Shown here: piece by piece, positions 1-28,095 of the stretch | How the letters are laid out: each line of letters starts with the position of its first letter | Numbering within the stretch: position 1 is the stretch's first letter | Source of the DNA: Myotis daubentonii | Taxonomy: Eukaryota; Chordata; Mammalia; Chiroptera; Vespertilionidae | Assembly (NCBI RefSeq): GCF_963259705.1 | Contig: NC_081851.1 | Span: 14,296,145-14,360,144 of the forward strand | DNA length: 64,000 nt | Reading direction: 5' to 3' | Made by a program: the position numbers and the translations under genes | Notes under the pieces: model-generated | Seen by the model: the letters and a program-made list of their open reading frames with translations, nothing else | Database searches by the model: none | What the model was told of the DNA's origin: nothing

Positions 1-1112
1 TAATGCTGGCAGTGTATAATAAATTGTTTGATTTCCTTTTTACATGGCAGGCTATGTAATATTGTTAAACTATTGAAAGGATGGTCAGCTCAAGATGTGC
101 AGTTTTATCCCAGAACTGGTATAGTTTTTCCCTTAACATCATGGTCTAGAACAGCATTGTTGGATATTTGAGATACTAGAGAATAGAGAAGTGAGGTTTG
201 ACGCTGTTTCACTGATGGGGAGGGATGTAAGGAGGGGGCAGGCATGTGCGAAGGGAATAGTGTAGATTTCCTTAGTTTGGGCACCAGACAAGCCATTGTA
301 TACTGAGCCAACACTTTGAATAAGGACAAGGAGAAGTCTGAATGGGGATTTTCTCTCAAAACTTTCTAATCCTGGCAAGAAAAACAGAAGCTGATGTTAA
401 ATTTAAGTTTGGATTGGGGGGGTGGTGTGAATGGTGGTCGCAGACATGAGGAACAGGGTGGTCACAGTCATGAGGATCAGGATGTTGTGTTAGTGCTGGC
501 AGTGTATAAATATGACTTTGATTTCCTTTTTACATGGTAAACTATTGACTGTAGTTAAACTATTGAAAGGATGGTCAGCTCAATATCTGAAGTTTTATGC
601 CACATCAGGTCCAGTTTTTCCTTTAACAACTTGGTCTAGAACATCATTGATGTATATTTGAGATGCTAGAGAAGTGAGGTTTCACTCTGTTTCTTTGATG
701 ATTCACTTATGTTTACATTTTCCCCTTACATAAGTAAGATATTAGTAATAAGGGAAATTGGGTATGGTGTACATGGTTACTATCTTCACAATTTTTCTGT
801 AAATCTGGAACTATTCTAAAACAAGACATCCATTAATACAACACTCAAATCCCTAGGAAATCATAGCAATGGAACATAGTGGAATCGACCACTGGAATGA
901 CGGGGGAGTATGGGAATTGTCTTAGAGGTAACACCACCTCCCTGCCATATGCTGGACTGTAATGGAACTAGAGGAATTGAGAGAGAGAGAGGTCAGTTTA
1001 GGAAATAATTTTTGGAGTGAAGAGGAAGTTCTCTGTTCTATAACCAATTTGTCTGAGATTTCTGCATCCTCTGCCACCCCCGCCCCTCCTGGATGGTCAA
1101 GCTGAGGCTTTG

Positions 1113-1201
1113 TGATGTCAAGCCAAACCATGGCAACCACAGATTTTGGGCAAACAGAGCTGAAGTGATTGGCTCCTCCTTAACCTAAAGAGAATATATA
1201 G
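1113..1201 (+). promoter_or_regulatory. Promoter-like module of the satellite unit (representative copy)
   Basis: Motifs in order: CRE-like TGATGTCA (1113-1120), ATGGCAACC containing the RFX right half-site GGCAAC (~1129-1137), inverted CCAAT ATTGG (1168-1172) and TATA ATATATAG (~1194-1201). The ATG of the short ORF lies about 110 bp downstream. The TATA recurs at the same place in nearly every unit (for example near 2595, 3995, 5395, 6795, 8197, 9599, 11350, 12753, 14149, 15549, 16948, 19757, 21507, 22911, 24308). It is lost near 25,711 and altered near 27,075. The CRE-like site is mutated (TTATGTCA) in a subset such as 2513 and 6713. CRE plus X-box plus TATA resembles testis promoters of the CREM/RFX2 type. 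Function is inferred only. Confidence 0.5.
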
Positions 1202-1305
1202 AGGCCAGGATCCTTTAAGTAGTGTCTCTTGCCTTAAATTAGCTAAAATTAGTAAGATGATATTGAAGAATAGTAGAGATAAGGAAAAAGACACTACACA
1301 CAAGG

Positions 1306-1476
1306 ATGGATGAAGAAACTGCAAGTACAAAAGTGAATTTATGTTTGTATTGGGGGCAGGGGGGGAAGGATGGTGGTGGTCGCAGCCATGAGGAACAGAG
1401 TGTTGTGTTAATGCCGGCAGTGTATAATAAATTGTTTGATTTCCTTTTTACATGGCAGGCTATTGAATATTGTTAA
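1306..1476 (+). other. Short conserved ORF (56 codons) in each satellite unit; coding status doubtful
   Basis: ATG in good Kozak context (A at -3, G at +4), 56 codons then TAA. The same start and frame are kept in units starting 2706, 4106, 5506, 6906, 8308, 9710, 12864, 15662 and 17061. The frame breaks in the G-run in 11461, 14260, 18460 and 24418, and elsewhere in 25822. The peptide has a Gly-rich middle followed by SHEEQ and FDFLFTW. No known domain is recognised. Subrepeat B carries a related frame (for example 1743-1940) ending NNEFDFLFT. Between the first and the most diverged unit (27193) most codon differences change the amino acid, so protein-level constraint is not supported. It is probably an open frame without a protein function. 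Confidence 0.3.
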
Positions 1477-2110: not shown

Positions 2111-2140
2111 GTTTACATTTGCCCCTTACATAAGTAAGAT

Positions 2141-2225: not shown

Positions 2226-5200
2226 ACATCCATTAATACAACACTCAAAACCCTAGGAACTGGTAGCAACTGAACATAGTGGAATGGACCACTGGAATGA
2301 CAGGGGAGTATGGGAATTGTCTTAGAGGTAAAACCACCTCCCTGTCATATGCTGGACTATAATGGAACTAGAGGAATTGAGAGAGAGAGAGGTCAGTTTA
2401 GGAAAAAATTTTAGGAGTGAAGAGGAAGGTCTCTGTTCTTTAACCAGTTTGTCTGAGATTTCTGCATCCTCTGCCACCCCCGCCCCTCCTGGATGGTCAA
2501 GCTGAGGCTTTGTTATGTCAAGCCACACCATGAAAACCTCAGATTTTGGGCAAACAGAGCTGAAGTGATTGGCTCCTCCTTAACCTAAAGAGAATATATA
2601 GAGGCCAGGATCCTTTAAGTAGTGTCTCTTGCCTTAAATTAGCCAAAATTAGTAAAATGATATTGAAGACTAGTAGAGATAAGTAAAAAGACACTACACA
2701 CAAGGATGGATGAAGAAACTGCAAGTACAAAAGTGAATTTATGTTTGTATTGGGGGCAGGGGGGGAAGGATGGTGGTGGTCGCAGCCATGAGGAACAGAG
2801 TGTTGTGTTAATGCCGGCAGTGTATAATAAATTGTTTGATTTCCTTTTTACATGGCAGGCTATTGAATATTGTTAAACGATTGAAAGGATGGTCAGCTCA
2901 AGATGTGCAGCTTTATCCCACAACTGGTATGGTTTTTCCTTTAACATCATGGTCTAGAACAGCATTTTTGGATATTTGAGATACTAGAGAAGTGAGGTTT
3001 GACGCTGTTTCACTGATGGGGAGGGATGTAAGGAGGGGGCAGGCATGTGAGAAGGGAATAGTGTAGATTTCTTTAGTTGGGGCACCAGACAAGCCATTGT
3101 ATACTGAGCCAACACTTTGAATAAGGACAAGGAGAAGTCTGAATGGGGATTTTCTCTCAAAACTTTCTAATACTGGCAAGGAAAAAAGAAGCTGATGTTA
3201 AATTTAAGTTTGGATTTGGGGGTGTTATGGATGGTGGTAGCAGTCATGAGCAACGGGGTGGTCGAAGTCATGAGGAACATGGTGTTGTGTTAGTGCTTGG
3301 AGTGTATAATAATGAATTTGATTTCCTTTTTACATGGTAGACTGTTGAGTATTGTTAAACTATTGAAAAGATGGTCAGCTCAAGACTGAACTTTTATACC
3401 ACATCAAGTCCAGTTTTTCCTCTAACAACTTGGTCTAGAACATCATTGCTGTATATTTGAGATGCTAAAGAAGTGAGGTTTCACTCTGTTTCTTTGATGA
3501 TTCACTTCTTTTTACATTCGCCCCTTACATAAGTAAGATATTAGTAATCAGGGAAATTGGGTATGGTGTACATGGTTACTATCTTCACAATTTTTCTGTA
3601 AATCTGGAACTATTCTAAAACAAGACATCCATTAATACAACACTCAAAACCCTAGGAAATGGTAGCAACTGAACATAGTGGAATCGACCACTGGAATGAC
3701 GGGGGAGTATGAGAATTGTCTTAGATGTAACACCACGTCCCTGTCATATGCTGGACTATAATGGAACTAAAGGAATTGAGAGAGAGAGAGGTCAGTTTAG
3801 AAAATAATTTTTGGAGTGAAGAGGAAGTTCTCTGTTCTATAACCAATTTGTCTGAGATTTCTGCATCCTCTGCCACAGCCCGCCCCTCCTGGATGGTCAA
3901 GCTGAGGCTTTGTGATGTCAAGCCACACCATGGCAACCACAGATTTTGGGCAAACAGAGCTGAAGTGATTGGCTCCTCCTTAACCTAACGAGAATATATA
4001 GAGGCCAGGATCCTTTAAGTAGTGTCTCTTGCCTTAAATTAGCTAAAATTAGTAAGATGATATTGAAGACTAGTAGAGATACGGAAAAAGACACTACACA
4101 CAAGGATGGATGAAGAAACTGCAAGTACAAAAGTGAATTTATGTTTGTATTGGGGGCAGGGGGGGAAGGATGGTGGTGGTCGCAGCCATGAGGAACAGAG
4201 TGTTGTGTTAATGCCGGCAGTGTATAATAAATTGTTTGATTTCCTTTTTACATGGCAGGCTATTGAATATTGTTAAACGATTGAAAGGATGGTCAGCTCA
4301 AGATGTGCAGCTTTATCCCACAACTGGTATGGTTTTTCCTTTAACATCATGGTCTAGAACAGCATTTTTGGATATTTGAGATACTAGAGAAGTGAGGTTT
4401 GACGCTGTTTCACTGATGGGGAGGGATGTAAGGAGGGGGCAGGCATGTGAGAAGGGAATAGTGTAGATTTCTTTAGTTGGGGCACCAGACAAGCCATTGT
4501 ATACTGAGCCAACACTTTGAATAAGGACAAGGAGAAGTCTGAATGGGGATTTTCTCTCAAAACTTTCTAATACTGGCAAGGAAAAAAGAAGCTGATGTTA
4601 AATTTAAGTTTGGATTTGGGGGTGTTATGGATGGTGGTAGCAGTCATGAGCAACGGGGTGGTCGAAGTCATGAGGAACATGGTGTTGTGTTAGTGCTTGG
4701 AGTGTATAATAATGAATTTGATTTCCTTTTTACATGGTAGACTGTTGAGTATTGTTAAACTATTGAAAAGATGGTCAGCTCAAGACTGAACTTTTATACC
4801 ACATCAAGTCCAGTTTTTCCTCTAACAACTTGGTCTAGAACATCATTGCTGTATATTTGAGATGCTAAAGAAGTGAGGTTTCACTCTGTTTCTTTGATGA
4901 TTCACTTCTTTTTACATTCGCCCCTTACATAAGTAAGATATTAGTAATCAGGGAAATTGGGTATGGTGTACATGGTTACTATCTTCACAATTTTTCTGTA
5001 AATCTGGAACTATTCTAAAACAAGACATCCATTAATACAACACTCAAAACCCTAGGAAATGGTAGCAACTGAACATAGTGGAATCGACCACTGGAATGAC
5101 GGGGGAGTATGAGAATTGTCTTAGATGTAACACCACGTCCCTGTCATATGCTGGACTATAATGGAACTAAAGGAATTGAGAGAGAGAGAGGTCAGTTTAG

Positions 5201-8200: not shown

Positions 8201-9910
8201 TAGAGGCCAGGATCCTTTAAGTAGTGTCTCTTGCCTTAAATTAGCTAAAATTAGTAAGATGATATTGAAGACTAGTAGAGATACGGAAAAAGACACTACA
8301 CACAAGGATGGATGAAGAAACTGCAAGTACAAAAGTGAATTTATGTTTGTATTGGGGGCAGGGGGGGAAGGATGGTGGTGGTCGCAGCCATGAGGAACAG
8401 AGTGTTGTGTTAATGCCGGCAGTGTATAATAAATTGTTTGATTTCCTTTTTACATGGCAGGCTATTGAATATTCTTAAACGATTGAAAGGATGGTCAGCT
8501 CAAGATGTGCAGCTTTATCCCACAACTGGTATGGTTTTTCCTTTAACATCATGGTCTAGAACAGCATTTTTGGATATTTGAGATACTAGAGAAGTGAGGT
8601 TTGACGCTGTTTCACTGATGGGGAGGGATGTAAGGAGGGGGCAGGCATGTGAGAAGGGAATAGTGTAGATTTCTTTAGTTGGGGCACCAGACAAGCCATT
8701 GTATACTGAGCCAACACTTTGAATAAGGACAAGGAGAAGTCTGAATGGGGATTTTTTTTCTCAAAACTTTCTAATACTGGCAAGGAAAAAAGAAGCTGAT
8801 GTTAAATTTAAGTTTGGATTTGGGGGTGTTATGGATGGTGGTAGCAGTCATGAGCAACGGGGTGGTCGAAGTCATGAGGAACATGGTGTTGTGTTAGTGC
8901 TTGGAGTGTATAATAATGAATTTGATTTCCTTTTTACATGGTAGACTGTTGAGTATTGTTAAACTATTGAAAAGATGGTCAGCTCAAGACTGAACTTTTA
9001 TACCACATCAAGTCCAGTTTTTCCTCTAACAACTTGGTCTAGAACATCATTGCTGTATATTTGAGATGCTAAAGAAGTGAGGTTTCACTCTGTTTCTTTG
9101 ATGATTCACTTCTTTTTACATTCGCCCCTTACATAAGTAAGATATTAGTAATCAGGGAAATTGGGTATGGTGTACATGGTTACTATCTTCACAATTTTTC
9201 TGTAAATCTGGAACTATTCTAAAACAAGACATCCATTAATACAACACTCAAAACCCTAGGAAATGGTAGCAACTGAACATAGTGGAATCGACCACTGGAA
9301 TGACGGGGGAGTATGAGAATTGTCTTAGATGTAACACCACGTCCCTGTCATATGCTGGACTATAATGGAACTAAAGGAATTGAGAGAGAGAGAGGTCAGT
9401 TTAGGAAATAATTTTTGGAGTGAAGAGGAAGTTCTCTGTTCTATAACCAATTTGTCTGAGATTTCTGCATCCTCTGCCACAGCCCGCCCCTCCTGGATGG
9501 TCAAGCTGAGGCTTTGTGATGTCAAGCCACACCATGGCAACCACAGATTTTGGGCAAACAGAGCTGAAGTGATTGGCTCCTCCTTAACCTAACGAGAATA
9601 TATAGAGGCCAGGATCCTTTAAGTAGTGTCTCTTGCCTTAAATTAGCTAAAATTAGTAAGATGATATTGAAGACTAGTAGAGATACGGAAAAAGACACTA
9701 CACACAAGGATGGATGAAGAAACTGCAAGTACAAAAGTGAATTTATGTTTGTATTGGGGGCAGGGGGGGAAGGATGGTGGTGGTCGCAGCCATGAGGAAC
9801 AGAGTGTTGTGTTAATGCCGGCAGTGTATAATAAATTGTTTGATTTCCTTTTTACATGGCAGGCTATTGAATATTCTTAAACGATTGAAAGGATGGTCAG
9901 CTCAAGATGT

Positions 9911-10429
9911 GCAGCTTTATCCCACAACTGGTATGGTTTTTCCTTTAACATCATGGTCTAGAACAGCATTTTTGGATATTTGAGATACTAGGGAAGTGAG
10001 GTTTGACGCTGTTTCACTGATGGAGAGGGATATAAGGAGGGAGCAGGCATGTGAGAAGGGAATACTGTAGATTTCTTTAGTTGGAAGTTTTATCCCACAA
10101 CTGGTATAGTTTTTCCTTTAACATCATGGTCTAGAACAGCATTGTTCGATATTTGATATACTAGAGATGTGAGGTTTGACGCTCTGTCACTGATGGGGAG
10201 GGATGTAAGGAGGGGGCAGGCATGTGAGAAGGGAATACTGTAGATTTCTTTAGTTGGAAGTTTTATCCCACAACTGGTATAGTTTTTCCTTTAACATCAT
10301 GGTCTAGAACAGCATTGTTGGATATTTGAGATACTAGAGATGTGAGGTTTGACGCTCTGTCACTGATGGGGAGGGATGTAAGGAGGGGGCAGGCATGTGA
10401 GAAGGGAATAGTGTAGATTTCTTTAGTTG
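9911..10429 (+). repeat. Three tandem copies of a 173-bp piece of subrepeat A
   Basis: GAAG/GCAG-TTTTATCCCAC restarts at 9911, 10084 and 10257, exactly 173 bp apart. Each copy runs through TGGTCTAGAACAGCATT, GAGGTTTGACGCT and GCAGGCATGTGAGAAGGGA. Two extra copies (346 bp) account for the enlarged 1751-bp unit. Confidence 0.93.
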
Positions 10430-13400
10430 GGGCACCAGACAAGCCATTGTATACTGAGCCAACACTTTGAATAAGGACAAGGAGAAGTCTGACTGGGGAT
10501 TTTTTTTCTCAAAACTTTCTAATACTGGCAAAGAAAAAAGAAGCTGATGTTAAATTTAAGTTTGGATTGGGGGGGGTGGCATGGATGGTGGTCGCAGACA
10601 TGAGGAACAGGGTGGTCGCAGTTATGAGGAACAGGGTGTTGTGTTAGTGCTGGCAGTGTATAAATATGACTTTGATTTCCTCTTTACATGGTAGACTATT
10701 GAATATAGTTAAACTATTGAAAGGATGGTCAGCTCAATATCTGAAGTTTTATGCCACATCAGCTCCAGTTTTTCCTTTAACAACTTGGTCTAGATCATCA
10801 TTGCTGTATATTTGAGATGCTAGAGAAGTGAGGTTTCACTCTGTTTCTTTGATGATTCACTTCATGTTACATTTGCCCCTTACATAAGTCAGATATTAGT
10901 AATAAGGGAAATTGGGTATGGTGTACATGGTTATTATCTTTACAGTTTTTCTGTAAGTCTGGAACATTTCTAAAACAAAACATCCAGTAAAACAACACTC
11001 AAAACCCTAGGAAATGGTAGCAACTGAACATAGTGGAATGGACCACTGAAATGACGGGGGAGTATGGGAATTGTTTTAGAGGAAACACCACCTCCCTGCC
11101 ATATGCTGGACTATAATGAATCTAGAGGAATTGAGAGAGAGAGAGGTCAGTTTAGGAAATAATTTTTGGAGTGAAGAGGAAGTTCTCTGTTCTATAACCA
11201 GTTTGTCCGAGATTTCTGCATCCTCTGCCACCCCGGCCCCTCCTGGATGGTCAAGCTGAGGCTTTGTGATGTCAAGCCACACCATGGCAACCATAGATTT
11301 TCGGGAAAACAGAGCTGAAGTGATTAGCTCCTCCTTAACCCAAAGAGAATATATAGAGGCCAGGATCCTTTAAGTAGTGTCTCTTGCCTTAAATTAGCTA
11401 AAATTCGTAAGTTGATATTGAAGAATAGTAGAGATAAGGAAAAAGACTCTACACACAAGGATGGATGAAGAAACTACATGTACAAAAGTGAATTTATGTT
11501 TTTATTGGGCGGGGAGGGGGGGATGGATGGTGGTGGTCGCAGCCATGAGGAACAGATTGTTGTTTTAATGCCGGCAGTGTATAATAAATTGTTTGAATTC
11601 CTTTTTACATGGCAGGCTATTTAATATTGTTAAACTATTGAAAAAATGGTCAGCTCAAGATGTGAAATTTTATCCCAGAATTGGTATAGTATTTCCTTTA
11701 ACATCATGGTCTAGAACAGCATTGTTGGATATTTGAGATACTAGAGAAGTGAGGTTTGAAGCTGTTTCACTGATGGGGAGGGATTTAAGGAGGGGACAGG
11801 CATGTGAGTAGGGAATAGTGTAGATTTCTTTAGTTGGGGCACTAGACAAGCCATTCTATACTGAGCCAACACTTTGAATAAGGACAAGGAGAATTCTGAA
11901 TGGGGATTTTTTTCTCAATACTTTCTAATACTGGCAAGAAAAAAGAAGCTGATGTTAAATTTAAGTTGGGTTGGGGGGGGTGGTGTGAATGGTGGTCGCA
12001 GACATGAGGAACAGGTTGGTCACAGTCATGAGGATCAGGATGTTGTGTTAGTGCTGGCAATGTATAAATATGACTTTTATTTCCTTTTTACATGGTAGAC
12101 TATTGAATGTAGTTAAACTATTGAAAGGATGGTCAGCTCAATATCTGAAGTTTTATGCCACATCAGGTCCAGTTTTTCCTATAACAACTTGGTCTAGAAC
12201 ATCATTGATGTATATTTGAGATGCTATAGAAGTGAGGTTTCACTCTGTTTCTTTGATGATTCACTTCATGTTACATTTGCCCCTTACATAGGTAAGATAT
12301 TAATAATAAGGGAAATTGGGTATGGTGTACATGGTTATTATCTTCACAGTTTTTCTGTAAATCTGGAACTATTCTAAAACAAGACATCCATTAAAACAAC
12401 ACTGAAAATCCTAGGAAATGGAAGCAACTGAACATAGTGGAATGGACCACTGAAATGACGGGGGAGTATGGGAATTGTCTTAGAGGAAACACCACCTCCC
12501 TGCCATATGCTGGACTATAATGGAACTAGAGGAATTGAGAGAGAGAGAGGTCAGTTTAGGAAAAAATTTTAGGAGTGAAGAGGAAGGTCTCTGTTCTATA
12601 ACCATTGTGTCTGAGATTTCTGCATTCTCTGCCACCCCGGCCCCTCCTGGATGGTCAAGCTGAGGCTTTGTGATGTCAAGCCACACCATGGCAACCACAG
12701 ATTTTGGGCAAACAGAGCTGACGTGATTGGCTCCTCCTTAACCTAAAGAGAATATATAGAGGCCAGGATCTGTTAAGTAGTGTCTCTTGCCTTAAATTAG
12801 CTAAAATTAGTAAGATGATATTGAAGACTAGTAGAGATAAGGAAAATGACTCTACACACAAGGATGGATGAAGAAACTGCAAGTACAAAAGTGAATTTAT
12901 GTTTGTATTGGGGGGGAAGGGGGGTGAATGGTGGTGGTCACAGCCATGAGGAACAGAGTGTTGTGTTAATGCTGGCAGTGTATAATAAATTGTTTGATTT
13001 CCTTTTTACATGGCAGGCTATTGAATATTGTTAAACTATTGAAAGGATGGTCAGCTCAAGATGTGCAGTTTTAGCCAACAACTGGTATAGTTTTTCCTTT
13101 AACATCATGGTCTAGAACAGCATTGTTGGATATTTGATATACTAGAGAAGTGAGGTTTGACGCTGTTTCACTGATGGGGAGCGATGTAAGGAGGGGGCAG
13201 GCATGTGAGAAGGGAATAGTGTAGATTTTCTTAGTTGGGGCACCAGACAAGCCATTGTATACTGAGCCAACACTTTGAATAAGGACATGGAGAAGTCTGA
13301 ATGGGGATTTTTTTCTCATAACTTTCTAATACTGGCAAGGAAAACAGAAACTGATGTTAAATTTGTTTGGATTGGGGAGGTGGTGTGAATGGTGGTCGCA

Positions 13401-14770
13401 GACATGAGGAACAGGGTGGTCACAGTCATGAGGAACAGGGTGTTGTGTTAGTGCTGGCAGTGTATAAATATGACTTTGATTTCCTTTTTACATGGTAGAC
13501 TATTGAATGTAGTTAAACTATTGAAAGGATGGTCAGCTCAATATCTGAACTTTTATGCCATATCAGGTCTAGTTTTTCCTTTAACAACTTGGTCTAGAAC
13601 ATCATTGCTGTATATTTGAGATGCTAGAGAAGTTAGGTTTCACTCTGTTTCTTTGATGATTCACTTATTTTTACATTTGCCCTTCCATAAGTAAGATATT
13701 AGTAATAAGGGAAATTGGGTATTGTGTACATGGTTACTATCTTCACAATTTTTCTGTAAATCTGGAACTATTCTAAAATAAGACATCCATTAATACAACA
13801 CTCAAAACTCTAGGAAATGGTAGCAACTGAACATAGTGGAATCGACCACTGAAATGACGGGGGAGTATGGGAATTGTCTTAGAGGTAACACCACCTCCCT
13901 GCCATAACCTGGACTAATGGAACTAGAGGAATTGAGAGACAGAGAGGTCAGTTTAGGAAAAAAATTTTGGAGTGAAGAGGAAGTTCTCTGTTCTATAACC
14001 AGTTTGTCTGAGATTTCTGCATCCTCTGCCACCCCCGCCCCTCCTGGATGGTCAAGCTGAGGCTTTGTGATGTCAAGCCACACCATGGCAACCACAGATT
14101 TTGGGCAAACAGAGCTGAAGTGATTGGCTCCTCCTTAACCTAAAGAGAATATATAGAGCCCAGGATCCTTTAAGTAGTGTCTCTTGCCTTAAATTAGCTA
14201 AAATTAGTAAGATGATATTGAAGACTAGTAGAGATAAGGAAAAAGACTCTACAACAAGAATGGATGAAGAAACTGCAAGTACAAAAGTGAATTTCTGTTT
14301 GTATTGGGGGGCAGGGGGGGAAGCATGGCGGTGGTCGCAGCCATGAGGAACAGAGTGTTGTGTTAATACCGGCAGTGTATAATAAATTGTTTGATTTCCT
14401 TTTTACATGGCAGGCTATTGAATATTGTTAAACGATTGAAAGGATGGTCAGCTCAAGATGTGCAGTTTTATCCCACAACTGGTATGGTTTTTCCTTTAAC
14501 ATCATGGTCTAGAACAGCATTGTTGGATATTTGAGATACTAGAGAAGTGAGGTTTGGCGCTGTTTCACTGATGGGGAGGGATGTAAGGAGGGGGCAGGCA
14601 TGTGAGAAGGGAATAGTGTAGATTTCTTTAGTTGGGGCACCAGACAAGCCATTGTATACTGAGCCAACACTTTGAATAAGGACAAGGAGAAGTCTGAATG
14701 GGGATTTTTTTTCTCAAACCTTTCTAATACTGGCAAGGAAAAAAGAAGCTGATGTTAAATTTAAGTTTGG
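9985..14770 (+). repeat. Recent duplication block, left copy (~4.78 kb)
   Basis: Collinear with 20142-24928 at a constant offset of 10,157-10,158. Differences noticed are very few: 10338 versus 20495, ~10766 versus 20923, a one-base T-run change near 11905, 11983 versus 22143, and 13326 versus 23487. Identity ends at about 14770, where the sequence switches to a different subtype. It carries the 173-bp triplication and three unit starts. Confidence 0.9.
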
Positions 14771-17700
14771 ATTTGGGGGTGTTATGGATGGTGGTAGCAG
14801 TCATGAGCAACGGGGTGGTCGAAGTCATGAGGAACATGGTGTTGTGTTAGTGCTTGGAGTGTATAATAATGAATTTGATTTCCTTTTTACATGGTAGACT
14901 GTTGAGTATTGTTAAACTATTGAAAAGATGGTCAGCTCAAGACTGAACTTTTATACCACATCAAGTCCAGTTTTTCCTCTAACAACTTGGCCTAGAACAT
15001 CATTGCTGTATATTTGAGATGCTAAAGAAGTGAGGTTTCACTCTGTTTCTTTGATGATTCACTTCTTTTTACATTTGCCCCTTACATAAGTAAGATATTA
15101 GTAATAAGGGAAATTGGGTATGGTGTACATGGTTACTATCTTCACAATTTTTCTGTAAATCTGGAACTATTCTAAAACAAGACATCCATTAATACAACAC
15201 TCAAAACCCTAGGAAATGGTAGCAACTGAACATAGTGGAACGGACCACTGAAATGACGGGGGAGTATGGGAATTGTCTTAGAGGAAACACCACCTCCCTG
15301 CCATATGCTGGACTGTAATGGAACTAGAGGAATTGAGAGAGAGAGAGGTCAGTTTAGGACAAAATTTTAGGAGTGAAGAGGAAGGTCTCTGTTCTTTAAC
15401 CAGTTTGTCTGAGATTTCTGCATCCTCTGCCACCCCCGCCCCTCCTGGATGGTCAAGCTGAGGCTTTGTTATGTCAAGCCACACCATGAAAACCTCAGAT
15501 TTTGGGCAAACAGAGCTGAAGTGATTGGCTCCTCCTTAACCTAAAGAGAATATATAGAGGCCAGGATCCTTTAAGTAGTGTCTCTTGCCTTAAATTAGCC
15601 AAAATTAGTAAAATCATATTGAAGACTAGTAGAGATAAGGAAAAAGACACTACACACAAGGATGGATGAAGAAACTGCAAGTACAAAAGTGAATTTATGT
15701 TTGTATTGGGGGCAGGGGGGGAAGGATGGTGGTGGTCGCAGCCATGAGGAACAGAGTGTTGTGTTAATGCCGGCAGTGTATAATAAATTGTTTGATTTCC
15801 TTTTTACATGGCAGGCTATTGAATATTGTTAAACGATTGAAAGGATGGTCAGCTCAAGATGTGCAGCTTTATCCCACAACTGGTATGGCTTTTCCTTTAA
15901 CATCATGGTCTAGAACAGCATTTTTGGATATTTGAGATACTAGAGAAGTGAGGTTTGACGCTGTTTCACTGATGGGGAGGGATGTAAGGAGGGGGCAGGC
16001 ATGTGAGAAGGGAATAGTGTAGATTTCTTTAGTTGGGGCACCAGACAAGCCATTGTATACTGAGCCAACACTTTGAATAAGGACAAGGAGAAGTCTGAAT
16101 GGGGATTTTCTCTCAAAACTTTCTAATACTGGCAAGGATAAAAGAAGCTGATGTTAAATTTAAGTTTGGATTTGGGGGTGTTATGGATGGTGGTAGCAGT
16201 CATGAGCAACGGGGTGGTCGAAGTCATGAGGAACATGGTGTTGTGTTAGTGCTTGGAGTGTATAATAATGAATTTGATTTCCTTTTTACATGGTAGACTG
16301 TTGAGTATTGTTAAACTATTGAAAAGATGGTCAGCTCAAGACTTAACTTTTATACCACATCAAGTCCAGTTTTTCCTCTAACAACTTGGTCTAGAACATC
16401 ATTGCTGTATATTTGAGATGCTAAAGTAGTGAGGTTTCACTCTGTTTCTTTGATGATTCACTTCTTTTTACATTTGCCCCTTACATAAGTAAGATATTAG
16501 TAATAAGGGAAATTGGGTATGGTGTACATGGTTATAATCTTCACAATTTTTCTGTAAATCTGGAACTATTCTAAAATAAGAAATCCATTAATACAACACT
16601 CAAAACCCTAGGAACTGGTAGCAACTGAACATAGTGGAACGGACCACTGAAATGACGGGGGAGTATGGGAATTGTCTTAGAGGAAACACCACCTCCCTGC
16701 CATATGCTGGACTGTAATGGAACTAGAGGAATTGAGAGAGAGAGAGGTCAGTTTAGGAAAAAATTTTAGGAGTGAAAAGGAAGGTCTCTGTTCTTTAACC
16801 AGTTTGTCTGAGATTTCTGCATCCTCTGCCACCCCCGCCCCTCCTGGATGGTCAAGCTGAGGCTTTGTTATGTCAAGCCACACCATGACAACCTCAGATT
16901 TTGGGCAAACAGAGCTGAAGTGATTGGCTCCTCCTTAACCTAAAGAGAATATATAGAGGCCAGGATCCTTTAAGTAGTGTCTCTTGCCTTAAATTAGCCA
17001 AAATTAGTAAAATGATATTGAAGACTAGTAGAGATAAGTAAAAAGACACTACACACAAGGATGGATGAAGAAACTGCAAGTACAAAAGTGAATTTATGTT
17101 TGTATTGGGGGCAGGGGGGGAAGGATGGTGGTGGTCGCAGCCATGAGGAACAGAGTGTTGTGTTAATGCCGGCAGTGTATAATAAATTGTTTGATTTCCT
17201 TTTTACATGGCAGGCTATTGAATATTGTTAAACGATTGAAAGGATGGTCAGCTCAAGATGTGCAGCTTTATCCCACAACTGGTATGGTTTTTCCTTTAAC
17301 ATCATGGTCTAGAACAGCATTTTTGGATATTTGAGATACTAGAGAAGTGAGGTTTGACGCTGCTTCACTGATGGGGAGGGATGTAAGGAGGGGGCAGGCA
17401 TGTGAGAAGGGAATAGTGTAGATTTCTTTAGTTGGGGCACCAGACAAGCCATTGTATACTGAGCCAACACTTTGAATAAGGACAAGGAGAAGTCTGAATG
17501 GGGATTTTCTCTCAAAACTTTCTAATACTGGCAAGGAAAAAAGAAGCTGATGTTAAATTTAAGTTTGGATTTGGGGGTGTTATGGATGGTGGTAGCAGTC
17601 ATGAGCAACAGGGTGGTCGCAGTCATGAGGAACATGGTGTTGTGTTAGTGCTGGGAGTGTATAATAATGAATTTGATTTCCTTTTTACATTTAGACTGTT

Positions 17701-20067
17701 GAATATTGTTAAACTATTGAAAGGATGGTCAGCTCAAGACCTGAACTTTTATACCACATCAAGTCCAGTTTTTCCTCTAACAACTTGGTCTAGAACATCA
17801 TTGCTGTATATTTGAGATGCTAAAGAAGTGAGGTTTCACTCTGTTTCTTTGATGATTCACTTCTTTTTTACATTTGCCCCTTACATAAGTAAGATATTAG
17901 TAATAAGGGAAATTGGGTATGGTGTACATGGTTACTATCTTCACAATTTTTCTGTAAATCTGGAACTATTCTAAAACAAGACATCCATTAATACAACACT
18001 CAAAACCCTAGGAAATGGTAGCAACTGAACATAGTGGAATCGACCACTGGAATGACGGGGGAGTATGGGAATTGTCTTAGAGGTAACACCACCTCCCTGT
18101 CATATGCTGGACTGTAATGGAACTAGAGGAATTGAGAGAGAGAGAGGTCAGTTTAGGAAAAAATTTTAGGAGTGAAGAGGAAGGTCTCTGTTCTTTAACC
18201 AGTTTGTCTGAGATTTCTGCATCCTCTGCCACCCCCGCCCCTCCTGGATGGTCAAGCTGAGGCTTGTTATGTCAAGCCACACCATGACAACCTCAGATTT
18301 TGGGCAAACAGAGCTGAAGTGATTGGCTCCTCCTTAACCTAAAGAGAATATATAGATGCCAGGATCCTTTAAGTAGTGTCTCTTGCCTTAAATTAGCTAA
18401 AATTAGTAAGATGATATTGAAGACTAGTAGAGATAAGTAAAAAGACTCTACACACAAGGATGGATGAAGAAACTGCAAGTATAAAAGTGAATTTATGTTT
18501 GTATTGGGGGGCAGGGGGGGAAGGATGGTGTTGGTCGCAGCCATGAGGAACAGAGTGTTGTGTTAATGCCGGCAGTGTATAATAAATTGTTTGATTTCCT
18601 TTTTACATGGCAGGCTATTGAATATTGTTAAGCTATTGAAAGGATGGTCAGCTCAAGATATGCAGTTTTATCCCACAAGTGCTATGGTTTTTCCTTTAAC
18701 ATCATTGTCTAGAACAGCATTGTTGGATATTTGAGATACTAGAGAATAGAGAAGTGAGGTTTGACGCTGTTTCACTGATGGGGATGGATGTAAAGAGGGG
18801 GCAGGCATGTGAGAAGGGAATAGTGTAGATTTCCTTAGTTGGGGCACCAGACAAGCCATTGTATACTGAGCCAACACTTTGAATAAGGACAAGGAGAAGT
18901 CTGAATGGGGATTTTCTCTCAAAACTTTCTAATACTGGCAAGGAAAAAAGAAGCTGATGTTAAATTTAAGTTTGGATTTGGGGGTGTTATGGATGGTGGT
19001 AGCAGTCATGAGCAACAGGGTGGTCGCAGTCATGAGGAACATGGTGTTGTGTTAGTGCTGGGAGTGTATAATAATGAATTAGATTTCCTTTTTACATGGT
19101 AGACTGTTGAATATTGTTAAACTATTGAAAGGATGGTCAGCTCAAGATCTGAACTTTTATACCACATCAAGTCCAGTTTTTCCCTTAACAACTTGGTCTG
19201 GAACATCATTGCTGTATATTTGAGATGCTAAAGAAGTGAGGTTTCACTCTATTTCTTTCATGATTCACTTCTTTTTACATTTGCCCCTTTCATAAGTAAG
19301 ATATTAGTAATAAGGGAAATTGGGTATGGTGTACATGGTTATAATCTTCACAATTTTTCTGTAAATCTGGAACTATTCTAAAATAAGAAATCCATTAATA
19401 CAACACTCAAAACCCTAGGAACTGGTAGCAACTGAACATAGTGGAATGGACCACTGAAATGACGGGGGAGTATGGGAATTGTCTTATAGAAAACACCACC
19501 TCCCTGCCATATGCTGGGCTGTAATGGAACTAGAGGAATTGAGAGAGAAGGAGGTCAGTTTAGGAAAAGATTTTAGGAGTGAAGAGGAAGGTCTCTGTTC
19601 TATAACCAGTGTGTCTGAGATTTCTACATCCTCTGCCACCCTGGCCCCTCCTGGATGGTCAAGCTGAGGCTTTGTGATGTCAAGCCACACCATGACAACC
19701 ACAGATTTTGGGCAAACAGAGCTGAAGTGATTGGCTCCTCCTTAACCTAAAGAGAATATATAGAGGCCAGGATCATTTAAGTAGTGTCTCTTGCCTAAAA
19801 TTAGCTAAAATTAGTAAGATGATATTGAAGACTAGCAGAGATAGGGAAAAAGACTCTACACACAAGGATGGATGAAGAAACTGCAAGTACAGAAGTGAAT
19901 TTATGTTTGTTTTGGGGGTAGGGGGGATGGATCGTGGTGGTCGCAGCCATGAGGAACAGAGTGTTGTGTTAATGCCGGCAGTGTATAATAAATTGTTTGA
20001 TTTCCTTTTTACATGGCAGGCTATTGAATATTGTTAAACTATTGAAAGGATGGTCAGCTCAAGATGT

Positions 20068-20586
20068 GAAGTTTTATCGCACAACTGGTATAGTTTTTCC
20101 TTTAACATCATGCTCTAGAACAGCATTGTTGGATATTTGAGATACTAGAGAAGTGAGGTTTGACGCTGTTTCACTGATGGAGAGGGATATAAGGAGGGAG
20201 CAGGCATGTGAGAAGGGAATACTGTAGATTTCTTTAGTTGGAAGTTTTATCCCACAACTGGTATAGTTTTTCCTTTAACATCATGGTCTAGAACAGCATT
20301 GTTCGATATTTGATATACTAGAGATGTGAGGTTTGACGCTCTGTCACTGATGGGGAGGGATGTAAGGAGGGGGCAGGCATGTGAGAAGGGAATACTGTAG
20401 ATTTCTTTAGTTGGAAGTTTTATCCCACAACTGGTATAGTTTTTCCTTTAACATCATGGTCTAGAACAGCATTGTTGGATATTTGAGATACTAGAGATAT
20501 GAGGTTTGACGCTCTGTCACTGATGGGGAGGGATGTAAGGAGGGGGCAGGCATGTGAGAAGGGAATAGTGTAGATTTCTTTAGTTG
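20068..20586 (+). repeat. Second 173-bp triplication
   Basis: Copies start at 20068, 20241 and 20414 (period 173). Same variants as the 9.9-10.4 kb triplication, including the CATTGTTCGATATTTGATATAC variant in the middle copy. It belongs to the 10.157-kb-spaced duplicated block. Confidence 0.93.
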
Positions 20587-23500
20587 GGGCACCAGACAAG
20601 CCATTGTATACTGAGCCAACACTTTGAATAAGGACAAGGAGAAGTCTGACTGGGGATTTTTTTTCTCAAAACTTTCTAATACTGGCAAAGAAAAAAGAAG
20701 CTGATGTTAAATTTAAGTTTGGATTGGGGGGGGTGGCATGGATGGTGGTCGCAGACATGAGGAACAGGGTGGTCGCAGTTATGAGGAACAGGGTGTTGTG
20801 TTAGTGCTGGCAGTGTATAAATATGACTTTGATTTCCTCTTTACATGGTAGACTATTGAATATAGTTAAACTATTGAAAGGATGGTCAGCTCAATATCTG
20901 AAGTTTTATGCCACATCAGCTCCAGGTTTTCCTTTAACAACTTGGTCTAGATCATCATTGCTGTATATTTGAGATGCTAGAGAAGTGAGGTTTCACTCTG
21001 TTTCTTTGATGATTCACTTCATGTTACATTTGCCCCTTACATAAGTCAGATATTAGTAATAAGGGAAATTGGGTATGGTGTACATGGTTATTATCTTTAC
21101 AGTTTTTCTGTAAGTCTGGAACATTTCTAAAACAAAACATCCAGTAAAACAACACTCAAAACCCTAGGAAATGGTAGCAACTGAACATAGTGGAATGGAC
21201 CACTGAAATGACGGGGGAGTATGGGAATTGTTTTAGAGGAAACACCACCTCCCTGCCATATGCTGGACTATAATGAATCTAGAGGAATTGAGAGAGAGAG
21301 AGGTCAGTTTAGGAAATAATTTTTGGAGTGAAGAGGAAGTTCTCTGTTCTATAACCAGTTTGTCCGAGATTTCTGCATCCTCTGCCACCCCGGCCCCTCC
21401 TGGATGGTCAAGCTGAGGCTTTGTGATGTCAAGCCACACCATGGCAACCATAGATTTTCGGGAAAACAGAGCTGAAGTGATTAGCTCCTCCTTAACCCAA
21501 AGAGAATATATAGAGGCCAGGATCCTTTAAGTAGTGTCTCTTGCCTTAAATTAGCTAAAATTCGTAAGTTGATATTGAAGAATAGTAGAGATAAGGAAAA
21601 AGACTCTACACACAAGGATGGATGAAGAAACTACATGTACAAAAGTGAATTTATGTTTTTATTGGGCGGGGAGGGGGGGATGGATGGTGGTGGTCGCAGC
21701 CATGAGGAACAGATTGTTGTTTTAATGCCGGCAGTGTATAATAAATTGTTTGAATTCCTTTTTACATGGCAGGCTATTTAATATTGTTAAACTATTGAAA
21801 AAATGGTCAGCTCAAGATGTGAAATTTTATCCCAGAATTGGTATAGTATTTCCTTTAACATCATGGTCTAGAACAGCATTGTTGGATATTTGAGATACTA
21901 GAGAAGTGAGGTTTGAAGCTGTTTCACTGATGGGGAGGGATTTAAGGAGGGGACAGGCATGTGAGTAGGGAATAGTGTAGATTTCTTTAGTTGGGGCACT
22001 AGACAAGCCATTCTATACTGAGCCAACACTTTGAATAAGGACAAGGAGAATTCTGAATGGGGATTTTTTTTCTCAATACTTTCTAATACTGGCAAGAAAA
22101 AAGAAGCTGATGTTAAATTTAAGTTGGGTTGGGGGGGGTGGTTTGAATGGTGGTCGCAGACATGAGGAACAGGTTGGTCACAGTCATGAGGATCAGGATG
22201 TTGTGTTAGTGCTGGCAATGTATAAATATGACTTTTATTTCCTTTTTACATGGTAGACTATTGAATGTAGTTAAACTATTGAAAGGATGGTCAGCTCAAT
22301 ATCTGAAGTTTTATGCCACATCAGGTCCAGTTTTTCCTATAACAACTTGGTCTAGAACATCATTGATGTATATTTGAGATGCTATAGAAGTGAGGTTTCA
22401 CTCTGTTTCTTTGATGATTCACTTCATGTTACATTTGCCCCTTACATAGGTAAGATATTAATAATAAGGGAAATTGGGTATGGTGTACATGGTTATTATC
22501 TTCACAGTTTTTCTGTAAATCTGGAACTATTCTAAAACAAGACATCCATTAAAACAACACTGAAAATCCTAGGAAATGGAAGCAACTGAACATAGTGGAA
22601 TGGACCACTGAAATGACGGGGGAGTATGGGAATTGTCTTAGAGGAAACACCACCTCCCTGCCATATGCTGGACTATAATGGAACTAGAGGAATTGAGAGA
22701 GAGAGAGGTCAGTTTAGGAAAAAATTTTAGGAGTGAAGAGGAAGGTCTCTGTTCTATAACCATTGTGTCTGAGATTTCTGCATTCTCTGCCACCCCGGCC
22801 CCTCCTGGATGGTCAAGCTGAGGCTTTGTGATGTCAAGCCACACCATGGCAACCACAGATTTTGGGCAAACAGAGCTGACGTGATTGGCTCCTCCTTAAC
22901 CTAAAGAGAATATATAGAGGCCAGGATCTGTTAAGTAGTGTCTCTTGCCTTAAATTAGCTAAAATTAGTAAGATGATATTGAAGACTAGTAGAGATAAGG
23001 AAAATGACTCTACACACAAGGATGGATGAAGAAACTGCAAGTACAAAAGTGAATTTATGTTTGTATTGGGGGGGAAGGGGGGTGAATGGTGGTGGTCACA
23101 GCCATGAGGAACAGAGTGTTGTGTTAATGCTGGCAGTGTATAATAAATTGTTTGATTTCCTTTTTACATGGCAGGCTATTGAATATTGTTAAACTATTGA
23201 AAGGATGGTCAGCTCAAGATGTGCAGTTTTAGCCAACAACTGGTATAGTTTTTCCTTTAACATCATGGTCTAGAACAGCATTGTTGGATATTTGATATAC
23301 TAGAGAAGTGAGGTTTGACGCTGTTTCACTGATGGGGAGCGATGTAAGGAGGGGGCAGGCATGTGAGAAGGGAATAGTGTAGATTTTCTTAGTTGGGGCA
23401 CCAGACAAGCCATTGTATACTGAGCCAACACTTTGAATAAGGACATGGAGAAGTCTGAATGGGGATTTTTTTCTCATAACTTTCTATTACTGGCAAGGAA

Positions 23501-24928
23501 AACAGAAACTGATGTTAAATTTGTTTGGATTGGGGAGGTGGTGTGAATGGTGGTCGCAGACATGAGGAACAGGGTGGTCACAGTCATGAGGAACAGGGTG
23601 TTGTGTTAGTGCTGGCAGTGTATAAATATGACTTTGATTTCCTTTTTACATGGTAGACTATTGAATGTAGTTAAACTATTGAAAGGATGGTCAGCTCAAT
23701 ATCTGAACTTTTATGCCATATCAGGTCTAGTTTTTCCTTTAACAACTTGGTCTAGAACATCATTGCTGTATATTTGAGATGCTAGAGAAGTTAGGTTTCA
23801 CTCTGTTTCTTTGATGATTCACTTATTTTTACATTTGCCCTTCCATAAGTAAGATATTAGTAATAAGGGAAATTGGGTATTGTGTACATGGTTACTATCT
23901 TCACAATTTTTCTGTAAATCTGGAACTATTCTAAAATAAGACATCCATTAATACAACACTCAAAACTCTAGGAAATGGTAGCAACTGAACATAGTGGAAT
24001 CGACCACTGAAATGACGGGGGAGTATGGGAATTGTCTTAGAGGTAACACCACCTCCCTGCCATAACCTGGACTAATGGAACTAGAGGAATTGAGAGACAG
24101 AGAGGTCAGTTTAGGAAAAAAATTTTGGAGTGAAGAGGAAGTTCTCTGTTCTATAACCAGTTTGTCTGAGATTTCTGCATCCTCTGCCACCCCCGCCCCT
24201 CCTGGATGGTCAAGCTGAGGCTTTGTGATGTCAAGCCACACCATGGCAACCACAGATTTTGGGCAAACAGAGCTGAAGTGATTGGCTCCTCCTTAACCTA
24301 AAGAGAATATATAGAGCCCAGGATCCTTTAAGTAGTGTCTCTTGCCTTAAATTAGCTAAAATTAGTAAGATGATATTGAAGACTAGTAGAGATAAGGAAA
24401 AAGACTCTACAACAAGAATGGATGAAGAAACTGCAAGTACAAAAGTGAATTTCTGTTTGTATTGGGGGGCAGGGGGGGAAGCATGGCGGTGGTCGCAGCC
24501 ATGAGGAACAGAGTGTTGTGTTAATACCGGCAGTGTATAATAAATTGTTTGATTTCCTTTTTACATGGCAGGCTATTGAATATTGTTAAACGATTGAAAG
24601 GATGGTCAGCTCAAGATGTGCAGTTTTATCCCACAACTGGTATGGTTTTTCCTTTAACATCATGGTCTAGAACAGCATTGTTGGATATTTGAGATACTAG
24701 AGAAGTGAGGTTTGGCGCTGTTTCACTGATGGGGAGGGATGTAAGGAGGGGGCAGGCATGTGAGAAGGGAATAGTGTAGATTTCTTTAGTTGGGGCACCA
24801 GACAAGCCATTGTATACTGAGCCAACACTTTGAATAAGGACAAGGAGAAGTCTGAATGGGGATTTTTTTTCTCAAACCTTTCTAATACTGGCAAGGAAAA
24901 AAGAAGCTGATGTTAAATTTAAGTTTGG
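20142..24928 (+). repeat. Recent duplication block, right copy (~4.78 kb)
   Basis: Near-identical partner of 9985-14770. Upstream of ~20142 and downstream of ~24928 the two loci follow different subtypes. The breakpoints therefore lie within satellite DNA, as expected of unequal exchange or gene conversion. Confidence 0.9.
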
Positions 24929-27900
24929 ATTGGGGAGGTGGTGTGGATGGTGGTCGAAGACATGAGGAACAGGGTGGTCTCAGTCATGAGGAACAGGGTG
25001 TTGTTTTAGTGCTGGCAGTGTATAATAATGAATTTAATTTCCTTTTTACATGGTAGACTATTGAATATTGTTAAACTATTGAAAGGATGGTCAGCTCAAG
25101 ATCTGAAGTTTGATGCCACATCAGGTCCAGTTTTTCCTTTAACAACTTGGTCTAGAACATCATTGCTGGATATTTGAGATATCAGAGAAGTGAGGTTTCA
25201 CTCTGTTTCACTGATGTTTCACTTCATGTTACATTTGCCCCATACATAATTAAGATATTAGTAATAAGGGAAATTCGGTATGGTGTACATGATTATTATC
25301 CTCACAATTTTTTCTTTAAATCTGGAACTATTCTAAAATAAAAAATCCATTAAAACAACACTCAAAATCCTAGGAAATGGTAGCAACTGAACATAGTGGA
25401 ATCGACCACTGAAATGACTGGGGAGTATGGGAATTGTCTTAGAGGAAACACCACCTCCCTGCCATATGCTGGACTGTAATGGAACTAGAGGAATTGAGAG
25501 AGAGAGAGGTCAGTTTAGTAAAAAATTTTAGGAGTGAAGAGGAAGGTGTCTGTTTTATATCCAGAGTTTCTGAGATTTCTGCATCCTCTCCCACCCCCGC
25601 CCCTCCTGGATGGTCAAGCTGAGGCTTTGTGATGTCAAGCCACACCATGGCAACCACAGATTTTGGGCAAACAGAGCTGAAGTGATTCGCTCCTCCTTAA
25701 CTTAAGAGAAAATATTGAGGCCAGGACCCTTTCAGTAGTGTCTGTTGCCTTAAATTAGCTTAAATTAATAAGATGATATTGAAGACTAGTAGAGAGAAGG
25801 AAAAAGACTCCACACACAAGGATGGATGCAGAAACTGCAAGTACAAAAGTGAATTTATGTTTGTATGGGTTGGGGGATGCATGGTGGTGGTCGCTGTCAT
25901 GAGGAACAGTTCGTTCTGTTAATGCTGGCATTGTATAATAAATTATTTAATTTCCTTTGTACATGGCAGACTATTAAATATTGTAAAACTATTGATAGGA
26001 TGGCCGGCTAAAGATGTGAAGTTTTATCCCAAAACTGGTATAGTTTTTCTATAACATCATGGTCTATATCAGCATTGTTGGATATTTGATATACTAGAGA
26101 AGTGAGGTTTGACTCTGTTTCACTGATGGGGCGGTATCTAATGAGGGGCTTTGCATGTGAGAAGGGAGTAATGTAGATTTCTCCAGTTGGGGCACCACAC
26201 AAGCCATTGCATACCGAGCTAACACTTTGGATAAGGACAAGAAGTCTGAATGGGGATTTTTTTTCTCAACACTTTCTAATACTGGCAAGGAAAAAAGAAG
26301 CTGATGTTTAATTTAGGTTTGGATTGGGGGTGGTATGGATGGTGGTCGCAGTCATGAGGAACAGGGTGTTGTTTTAGTGCTGGCAGTGTATAATAATGAA
26401 TTTAATTTCCTTTTTACATGGTAGACTATTGAATATTGTTAAACTATTGAAAGGATGCTCAGCTCAAGATCTGAAGTTTGATGCCACATCAGGTCCAGTT
26501 TTTCCTTTACCAACTTGGTCTAGAACATCATTGCTGGATATTTGAGATATCAGAGAAGTGAGGTTTCACTCTGTTTCACTGATGATTCACTTCATGTTAC
26601 ATTTGCCCCATACATAAGTAAGATATTAGTAATAAGGGAAATTCGGTATGGTGTACATGATTATTATTCTCACAATTTTTTCTGTAAATCTGGAACTATT
26701 CTAAAATAAAAAATCCATTTAAATAACACTCAAAATCTTAGGAAATGTTAGCAACTGAACATAGTAGAATGGACCACTCACATGATGGTCGAGTATGGGA
26801 ATTGTCTTAGAGGAAACACCACCTCCCTGCCATATTCTGGAGTATAATGGAACTAGAGGAATGGAGAGAGAGAGAGAGGATAGTTTGAGAAAAATTTTAG
26901 GAGTTAAGTGGAAGGTCTCTGTTCTATAAACAGAATCTCTAAGATTTCTGCATGCTCACCCACCCCCGCCCCTCCTTGATTGTCAAGCTGAGGCTTTGTA
27001 ATGTCAATCCCCAACATGGCAATCACTGATTTTGGGCAAACAGAGCTGAAGCGAGTGGCTCTCCATTAACCTAAAGAGTGTATATAGAAGTCCAGAACCC
27101 TTTGAGTAGTGTCTGTTGTTTCAAGATAGTGAATCTTAATAAGACTATATTGTATTCTAGTAGAGATAAGTAATAAGACTCCAAACACAAGGATGGAAAA
27201 AGAAACTGCAAGTCCAAAAGTGAATTTATGTTTGTATTGGTGCAGGGGGATGGATGGTGTTGGTCGCAGTCATGAGGGACGGGGTGTTGTGCTAGTGCTG
27301 GAAGTGTATAATAATGAATTTGATTTCCTTTTTACGTGGTAGACTATTGAATATTGTTAAACTAATGAAAGTTTGGTCAGCTCAAGATGTGACGTTTTAT
27401 GCCACAACTGGTAAAGTTTTCCTTTAACATCATCGTCTAGAACAGCAATGTTTGATATTCGAGATACTAGAGAACTCAGGTTTGACTGTTTCACCAATGG
27501 GCACGGATCTAAGGGGGCAGAAGTCATGTGAGAAGGGAGTAATGTAGATTTCTTTAATTGGGGCACCAGACAAGCCATTCCATACTGAGCCAGACACTTA
27601 GAATAAGGACAAGGAGAAGTCTGGAATGGGATCTTTTTCCCAACACTTTCTCATACCTGCAAAGAAATAAAACACTGATATTTAATATAGGTTTGGATTG
27701 GGGAGGTGGGATGGATGGTGTTGGTCGTAGTCATGAGGAACAGGGTGTTGTGTTAGTGCTTGCTGTGTATAATAATGAATTTGATTCCCTTTTTACATGA
27801 CAGACTACTGAATATTTGTACACTATTGAAAGGATGGTCAGCTCAAGATCTGAAGTTTTATGCCACATCGTGTCCAGTTTTTCCTTCAACAACTTGGTCT

Positions 27901-28095
27901 AGAACAGCATTGTTGGATATTGGAGTTACTAGGGAAGTGAGGTTTCACTCTCTTTCACTGATGATTTACTTCATGTTACATTTGCCTCAACCATAAGTAA
28001 GGTATTAGTAATAAGGGTAATTGGGTATGGTGTACATGGTTATTATCTTCATAATTTTTCTGTAAATCTGGAACTATTCTAAAATTAAACATCCA
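24929..28095 (+). repeat. Diverged right edge of the macrosatellite
   Basis: Units starting 25822 and 27193 remain alignable throughout but carry many substitutions and small deletions. The TATA is lost near 25,711, the short ORF of 25822 is broken, and one interval shrinks to 1371 bp. Interior units differ from each other far less. The last recognisable satellite base is about 28,095, just after the L1-3'-end-like segment. Confidence 0.9.

What the first reader, a model, noticed from the sequence alone, without database searches (positions are those of the whole stretch)
1..28095. Macrosatellite whose 1.4-kb unit carries a conserved promoter-like module
At least 19 units occur, each with CRE-like, GGCAAC (half X-box), inverted CCAAT and TATA motifs in fixed spacing, about 110 bp upstream of a short ORF. 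Fixed order across units is seen directly. CRE, X-box and TATA together recall testis promoters driven by CREM/RFX2. I infer the array may be transcribed in the germ line as tandem short transcripts, lncRNA or piRNA precursor, like other transcribed macrosatellites (D4Z4, DXZ4, TSPY arrays).
Basis: partly seen in the sequence, partly recalled or inferred. Interest (0 to 1): 0.75.

Follow-up and report, generated by a model that had tools for sequence, protein, structure and literature searches.

The report
Bat X-Y-autosome tandem repeat family
The long run of 1.4-kb repeats is one autosomal branch of a family of more than a thousand repeat copies found on the X, the Y and a few autosomes of what is probably a bat; it carries a promoter-like stretch that is real but whose motifs are no better preserved here than their surroundings.

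Summary
The array is real: 19 units of ~1.4 kb in the window, 36.8 kb in all, on contig C13, which is not the XIST contig. The inverted CCAAT looks derived; the short ORF is out of frame in about half the units. The larger result lies outside the window. The unit belongs to a family with at least 1,099 sites of one 49-base segment, on X (XIST, ZFX-type exons), Y (ZFY-type exons), C17, C3 and 13-16 clusters on C13. Monomers of ~0.92 and ~1.37-1.40 kb recur; C3 alternates them. C13 arrays lie among a multi-copy Daple-like gene. Closest precedent: ETSTY7 of equids, testis-transcribed, on X, Y and autosomes. I read the window array as a largely neutral autosomal branch of an X-Y-autosome macrosatellite; germ-line transcription of sex-linked members is plausible but untested. 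Oddity: substitutions in the family are transversion-rich (ts/tv mostly 0.5-0.75, against about 1 in flanking duplicates).

The parts
1..28095 (+). right-hand 28 kb of a tandem array of ~1.4-kb units; the whole array is C13:14287479-14324239
   Evidence: blastn of one unit
3544..4943 (+). one example unit (1,400 bp)
   Evidence: anchor-to-anchor cutting
3913..4001 (+). promoter-like module of that unit: TGATGTCA at 3913, GGCAAC at 3932, ATTGG at 3968, TATATAG at 3995
4106..4276 (+). short ORF of 56 codons, 111 bp after the TATA-like site; frame not conserved between units
4175..4418 (+). first copy (R1) of the internally duplicated segment
4657..4899 (+). second copy (R2) of the internally duplicated segment, about 83% identical
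9590..14842 (+). part of a ~10.16-kb block that recurs once in the window; over 5,254 aligned columns the two copies are 99.3% identical
19748..25000 (+). second copy of that part
25261..28095 (+). two diverged terminal units; the last end is shared at 97-99% by four other array ends on C13
28096..35600 (+). LINE-1-like flank, named by inspection and recall; no repeat library was available
   Evidence: related copies in the flank

Best explanation
The array is an autosomal branch of a lineage-specific macrosatellite family with tandem arrays on X and Y and further sets on C17, C3 and C13. Two monomer sizes recur: ~0.92 kb (promoter-like module, short ORF, one R segment) and ~1.37-1.40 kb (the same plus a second R segment of ~0.46-0.48 kb). 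The spacings are shown; that the small form has a single R is inferred from lengths. On C13 it spread with segmental duplications, several of which also carry a Daple-like gene, and it evolves by unequal exchange and local homogenisation (duplicated multi-unit blocks, diverged array ends). In the C13 units the promoter-like module and the ORF are inherited remnants without detectable constraint of motifs or codons (tested); that they do nothing is inferred. Whether X/Y members are transcribed in the male germ line is open.
For: Copies on C23 (Xist exon 4, ZFX-type exons), C24 (ZFY-type exons), C17, C3 and C13. Spacing: C3 promoter sites alternate 920-922 and 1368-1375 bp, C17 pairs at 1374 bp, Y ORF-start sites at 2, 3 or 4 times ~915 bp in 8 of 8 gaps. 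Module changes per site 0.62 vs 0.94 for the rest, but motif sites 0.66 vs 0.60 between motifs, shift test p 0.18 (46 units); motif sites 0.94 vs 1.02, p 0.18 (85 units). ORF full length in 16 of 46 units; frame continuous across the G-run in 40 of 85; nonsynonymous/synonymous ratio relative to neutral 2.7 (26 and 2 changes) and 1.2 (62 and 12) in its two parts. Four other C13 array ends match the window's last unit at 97-99%. At five arrays a same-orientation Daple-like copy lies 84-124 kb upstream (from listed places).
Against: The module as a whole is a low-divergence window (5% and 10% of windows as low). A CRE-like and a TATA-like site are intact in both X units read. On X, listed exact copies number 33 for the modal promoter 49-mer and 34 for the ORF start, against 15 and 14 for two other segments; those two patterns were weighted to C13 forms, so this may be bias. 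Most of the C13 clusters seen lack a Daple-like copy in that arrangement. C24 as Y and C23 as X rest on marker genes only.
Confidence: 0.6

Rival explanations
1. X- and Y-linked members are a live male-germ-line ampliconic family (short non-coding transcripts or a ~50-residue peptide), possibly in X-Y conflict like Slx/Sly; the C13 array is spill-over.
For: Arrays on both assigned sex chromosomes plus autosomes. Gaps of 9,143-9,202 bp on X (4 of 19 gaps under 12 kb) and 9,056-9,152 bp on Y (4 of 5) among scored ORF hits. The ORF is open in one X unit, one codon shorter than in the window. Exact-copy counts on X favour promoter and ORF start. ETSTY7 shows that such families exist (PMC6063916, PMC10656420, passages).
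Against: No expression data. Protein searches with two unit ORFs found nothing. Many X and most Y rows carry an in-frame TAG (by inference the stop that shortens the ORF to about 49 codons, as in the last window unit). No Y place is among the promoter sites with 0 or 1 mismatch (that part of the list is complete), although 9 Y places match the ORF start exactly. Only one X locus and no Y locus could be read.
Confidence: 0.28
2. One reading: every C13 unit carries a working CREM/RFX2-type testis promoter giving tandem short transcripts or piRNA precursors.
For: Motif order and spacing are fixed and unlikely by composition alone; the stretch is mildly less variable than the unit average.
Against: Motif sites change as fast as the sites between them; all four exact in 39 of 85 units; ATTGG absent from both X units and from the last window unit, so probably derived; no mutation strand asymmetry.
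Confidence: 0.12
3. A structural array of the DXZ4 kind (CTCF-bound boundary).
For: Macrosatellite with arrays on X; one minus-strand site in the consensus lies one mismatch from a recalled 12-base CTCF core.
Against: No other site within 2 mismatches; about 40% GC and CpG-poor, unlike DXZ4 as recalled; many arrays rather than one.
Confidence: 0.05

Closest known systems
ETSTY7 of equids (PMC6063916 and PMC10656420; passages read)
   Same: amplified on X and Y with smaller sets on a few autosomes; no relatives of the bat unit ORFs found in the two searches run
   Different: ETSTY7 units are 2.8-5.7 kb with 3 exons, testis-limited expression shown, horizontal origin proposed; here expression is unknown and monomers are 0.92-1.40 kb; the two were not compared by sequence
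SST1 human macrosatellite (PMC3018141; passages read)
   Same: same unit on several chromosomes, inverted arrays, short ORFs, arrays among a gene cluster (zinc-finger genes there, Daple-like copies here)
   Different: 2.4-2.5 kb, 64% GC with a CpG island, expressed in all tissues examined; here 1.4 kb, about 40% GC, CpG-poor, expression unknown
D4Z4, DXZ4, TSPY arrays (partly passages of PMC3018141, partly recalled)
   Same: tandem units of kilobase size, some sex-linked
   Different: D4Z4 and TSPY carry genes and DXZ4 binds CTCF; no conserved gene was found here and the CTCF scan was inconclusive
Slx/Sly co-amplified families of mouse (abstract starts in the search listing only, PMC7263670, PMC7743899)
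   Same: amplification on both X and Y
   Different: those are named genes with reported transmission effects; nothing of the kind is shown here

Membership tests
macrosatellite | head-to-tail units of a kilobase or more in a multi-copy array | tested here: met
macrosatellite | copy-number polymorphism between individuals | not testable with these tools
   one assembly only
ETSTY7-like X-Y-autosome amplified family | tandem copies on X and on Y | tested here: met
   C23 assigned by Xist exon 4 and ZFX-type exons, C24 by ZFY-type exons; places; spacing
ETSTY7-like X-Y-autosome amplified family | testis-limited transcription | not testable with these tools
   no RNA data held
ETSTY7-like X-Y-autosome amplified family | sequence homology to ETSTY7 | not tested
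   ETSTY7 sequence was not fetched
CREM/RFX2-type testis promoter | CRE, X-box and TATA in one short module | tested here: inconclusive
   TGATGTCA (one base off the recalled CRE) and a half X-box; all four motifs in 9 of 19 window units
CREM/RFX2-type testis promoter | motifs preserved better than neighbouring sequence | tested here: not met
   genome-wide 49-mer counts 644 against 444, 931 and 1,099
DXZ4-type array | CTCF site in each unit | tested here: inconclusive
   recalled core consensus: one minus-strand site with 1 mismatch to the 12-base core, 2 to the 13-base core
TSPY/D4Z4-type gene array | conserved protein-coding gene in each unit | tested here: not met
   C13 only: ORF full length in 16 of 46; no purifying signal; no relative found
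piRNA cluster | small RNAs of 24-31 nt | not testable with these tools
   no small-RNA data held

The most novel reading that the evidence does not exclude
A bat-specific X-Y ampliconic system: more than a thousand copies on X, Y and a few autosomes, built on ~0.92-kb monomers with a ~9.1-kb ten-monomer spacing seen among hits on both X and Y; the X copies keep a CRE/half-X-box/TATA module and a ~50-codon ORF (the module on Y is unread and not close to the X form), are expressed in the male germ line and take part in X-Y conflict; and the family mutates with an almost flat, transversion-rich spectrum, as expected if its variation is made mostly by error-prone repair synthesis during exchange between units.
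Probability: 0.23. Interest if true: 0.85.

Novelty: new member of a known kind. Interest (0 to 1): 0.5.

Why it matters
X-Y co-amplified families are suspects in sex-chromosome conflict; PMC10656420 (passage) names rodents, cattle, cat and dog besides equids. One in a bat, with autosomal branches that can serve as comparators, makes a direct test possible: is the promoter-ORF module kept on X and Y but lost on autosomes? If the transversion excess holds up, the arrays would also let one read the mutational signature of unit exchange in a mammalian germ line.

Tried and rejected
Coding gene in the unit: rejected for C13. Known RNA family in the window: none at gathering score. Germ-line transcription read from mutation strand asymmetry: none in six paired classes at four frequency cut-offs, lowest p 0.18; low power. 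CpG depletion as a sign of methylation: array 0.175 and flank 0.27, but flank bins of similar GC have a median of 0.21, so I do not lean on it. X-linkage of the window contig: rejected, Xist exon 4 lies on C23. Unit derived from the neighbouring Daple-like gene: no similarity of the unit consensus to the fetched flank of this array at E 0.01. A larger monomer of 1.83 or 2.29 kb, read at first: dropped, since the denser lists show 0.92 plus 1.37 kb on C3 and multiples of ~0.915 kb on Y. Literature: searches with bat plus ampliconic, macrosatellite, satellite, Daple-like and ZFY terms listed no paper whose title or abstract start names this family; PMC13003292 holds 'ampliconic' 0 times and its tandem-repeat passages concern assembly, centromeres and telomeres (passages). 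This is no proof that it is unpublished. The 49-mer comparison is weak: the promoter pattern was one base off its own modal form and the 101 and 151 controls came from a majority of five sequences, three of them C13.

Full report
Check of the observation. One unit aligned to the window gives tandem copies from base 1 to 28095, with 19 promoter-like anchors. The window is C13:14296145-14360144 of a 2.13-Gb assembly in 121 contigs, and the array runs left to C13:14287479. The unit is about 1,400 bp with an internal duplication, about 83% identical, spaced 482-483 bp. A ~10.16-kb block recurs once; over 5,254 aligned columns its two copies are 99.3% identical. The units at the right end of this array and at one end of a second array are the most diverged. 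Motif spacing is fixed, but all four motifs are intact in only 9 of 19 window units and 39 of 85 units from seven stretches of C13.

Is the module constrained? Parsimony changes per site in 46 units: module 0.62, rest 0.94; 5% of equally long windows are as low; motif sites 0.66 against 0.60 between motifs; shift test p 0.18, random sites p 0.14. In 85 units: 0.99 against 1.30, 10% of windows as low, motif 0.94 against 1.02, p 0.18. Among the 96 most diverged unit pairs the two windows over the module have divergences of 0.109 and 0.155, inside the range of all windows, 0.088-0.194. So there is a mild dip of the whole stretch and no extra preservation of the motifs. In two X units and the last window unit the ATTGG position reads GAGTGG, so the inverted CCAAT is probably derived on C13. 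Of eight 49-base segments compared in five sequences, those over the CCAAT, the TATA and the predicted start vary most. CpG observed/expected is 0.11 in the consensus (6 against 53) and 0.175 in the array, against 0.27 in the flank and a median of 0.21 in 47 flank bins of similar GC, 4 of which are at 0.11 or below.

The ORF. The 56-codon ORF is full length in 16 of 46 units; frame is continuous across a G-run in 40 of 85; nonsynonymous against synonymous variants are 26 to 2 and 62 to 12 in its two parts, 2.7 and 1.2 times the neutral ratio. Two unit ORFs share no three 5-residue words with any of 5.8 billion proteins. There is no evidence of coding on C13.

Where else the family is. A promoter-core pattern of the C13 form has 226 sites. 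The places listed (a part) lie on C13:11.30-14.32 Mb, plus two on C1, where a 1.8-kb piece lies inside a LINE-1-like element and ends at a run of about 200 N, an assembly gap or a withheld stretch. The end of the last window unit finds four other array ends on C13 at 97-99% and longer matches at 83-91% on C17 (6.7-9.6 Mb), C23 (78.6-84.1 Mb), C24 and C13. C23 holds Xist exon 4 over the family cut-off and two sets of ZFX-type exons; C24 holds ZFY-type exons; a copy with many stops is on C1. I take C23 as X and C24 as Y. The ORF peptide of an X unit scores 150 places, of 2,716 candidates: 74 on C13, 51 on X, 10 on C3, 9 on Y, 3 on C119, 2 on C36, 1 on C17. Because only the best were scored, these are not copy numbers. 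Listed places fall into 13 to 16 clusters on C13 by the gap allowed.

Build. Promoter sites on C3 alternate at 920-922 and 1368-1375 bp, C17 sites form pairs at 1374 bp, and ORF-start sites on Y are spaced 2, 3 or 4 times ~915 bp in 8 of 8 gaps. Among scored ORF hits on X, gaps under 12 kb include 918, 919, five of 1833-1835 and four of 9143-9202, but also 948, 953, 973, 1914, 2297, 3649, 4468 and 8179; on Y 918 and four of 9056-9152. 918 is the 1,401-bp consensus less one 483-bp step, so the C13 unit reads as a ~0.92-kb core plus a second R segment.

Copy number. An ORF-start 49-mer has 1,099 sites within 3 mismatches, while only 3 of 100 fetched units, nearly all C13, match it; with the 226 C13-type sites the family has about 1,300 copies or more (inference).

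Genome-wide test of the module. Four 49-mers within 3 mismatches: 444 (consensus 101-149), 931 (151-199), 644 (CRE/half X-box), 1,099 (ORF start); reversed controls gave 0. The promoter segment does not stand out. On X alone the exact copies are 15, 14, 33 (modal form) and 34, which could mean constraint on X of both the CRE/X-box segment and the ORF start; pattern choice was uneven, so this stays a lead. On Y no place is within 1 mismatch of the promoter pattern, against 9 exact places for the ORF start.

Surroundings. A multi-copy Daple-like gene has 21 exon matches at 90% or more (15 on C13, C20 twice, one each on C10, C11, C14, C58), 8 at 70-74% on C13, and two distant ones (31 in all). 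Its closest named relatives are Daple-like proteins of Myotis, which fits a vespertilionid bat; the species itself is not named anywhere in the data. A 22-kb stretch with this gene left of the array is 98.4% identical to one 187 kb to its right. In five arrays a same-orientation copy lies 84-124 kb upstream; other clusters have none in that arrangement.

Mutation spectrum. Low-frequency variants of the array have 282 transitions and 470 transversions; without the four edge units 192:330, away from gaps 145:246, outside homopolymers 227:375. C13 consensus against X is 44:90, X against X 20:43, C13 consensus against the last window unit 78:102, the internal duplicates 18:22 and the two copies of the recurring block 9:26. 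Pairwise ratios are 0.64-0.75 in all divergence classes above 1%; the 15 pairs below 1% give 31:25, so the excess is not seen there. Flanking duplicates without CpG sites give 0.93-1.26 in six identity classes, with them 1.03-1.36. The array against the youngest flank class has p 3e-5 (CpG sites, few in the array, were not removed there). Human segmental duplications show a much smaller shift, 1.78 against 2.06 (PMC10172114, passages). The cause may be recombination-linked synthesis, sequence context or assembly; I cannot tell.

Verdict. A real macrosatellite, but the promoter claim for this array fails its own test. The interesting part is the family on X and Y, of which the window is an autosomal branch. 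Shown: location, spacing, lack of motif-specific and coding constraint on C13.

Noticed in passing
window 1-28095 and related units on C13 and X: Substitutions within the family are transversion-rich (ts/tv mostly 0.47-0.76) against about 1 in flanking duplicates; the youngest 15 unit pairs do not show it.
   Followed up: partly
G000:C24:3042819-3075967: In the ZFY-type gene on C24 two internal exon matches are present 10 times each, 1.7-2.9 kb apart: it looks like tandem amplification inside ZFY.
   Followed up: no
G000:C13:11.7-23.2 Mb, also C10, C11, C14, C20, C58: Amplification of a Daple-like coiled-coil gene, 29 exon matches at 70% or more; the long coiled-coil exon differs in length between two copies.
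   Followed up: partly
L033 2103-3909 (C1:173892103-173893909): A 1.8-kb piece of the array sits inside a LINE-1-like element on another chromosome and ends at a run of about 200 N.
   Followed up: partly
window 1-28000: Constant positive GC skew (0.17-0.30 per 2 kb) across the array, -0.17 to 0.11 outside it.
   Followed up: no
G000:C17:6.70-9.59 Mb: C17 carries small scattered sets, often two promoter sites 1374 bp apart, on both strands, as if carried by segmental duplications.
   Followed up: no
L034 2187-3000: The second X unit is cut off by unrelated sequence that looks like an LTR-type element; not analysed.
   Followed up: no
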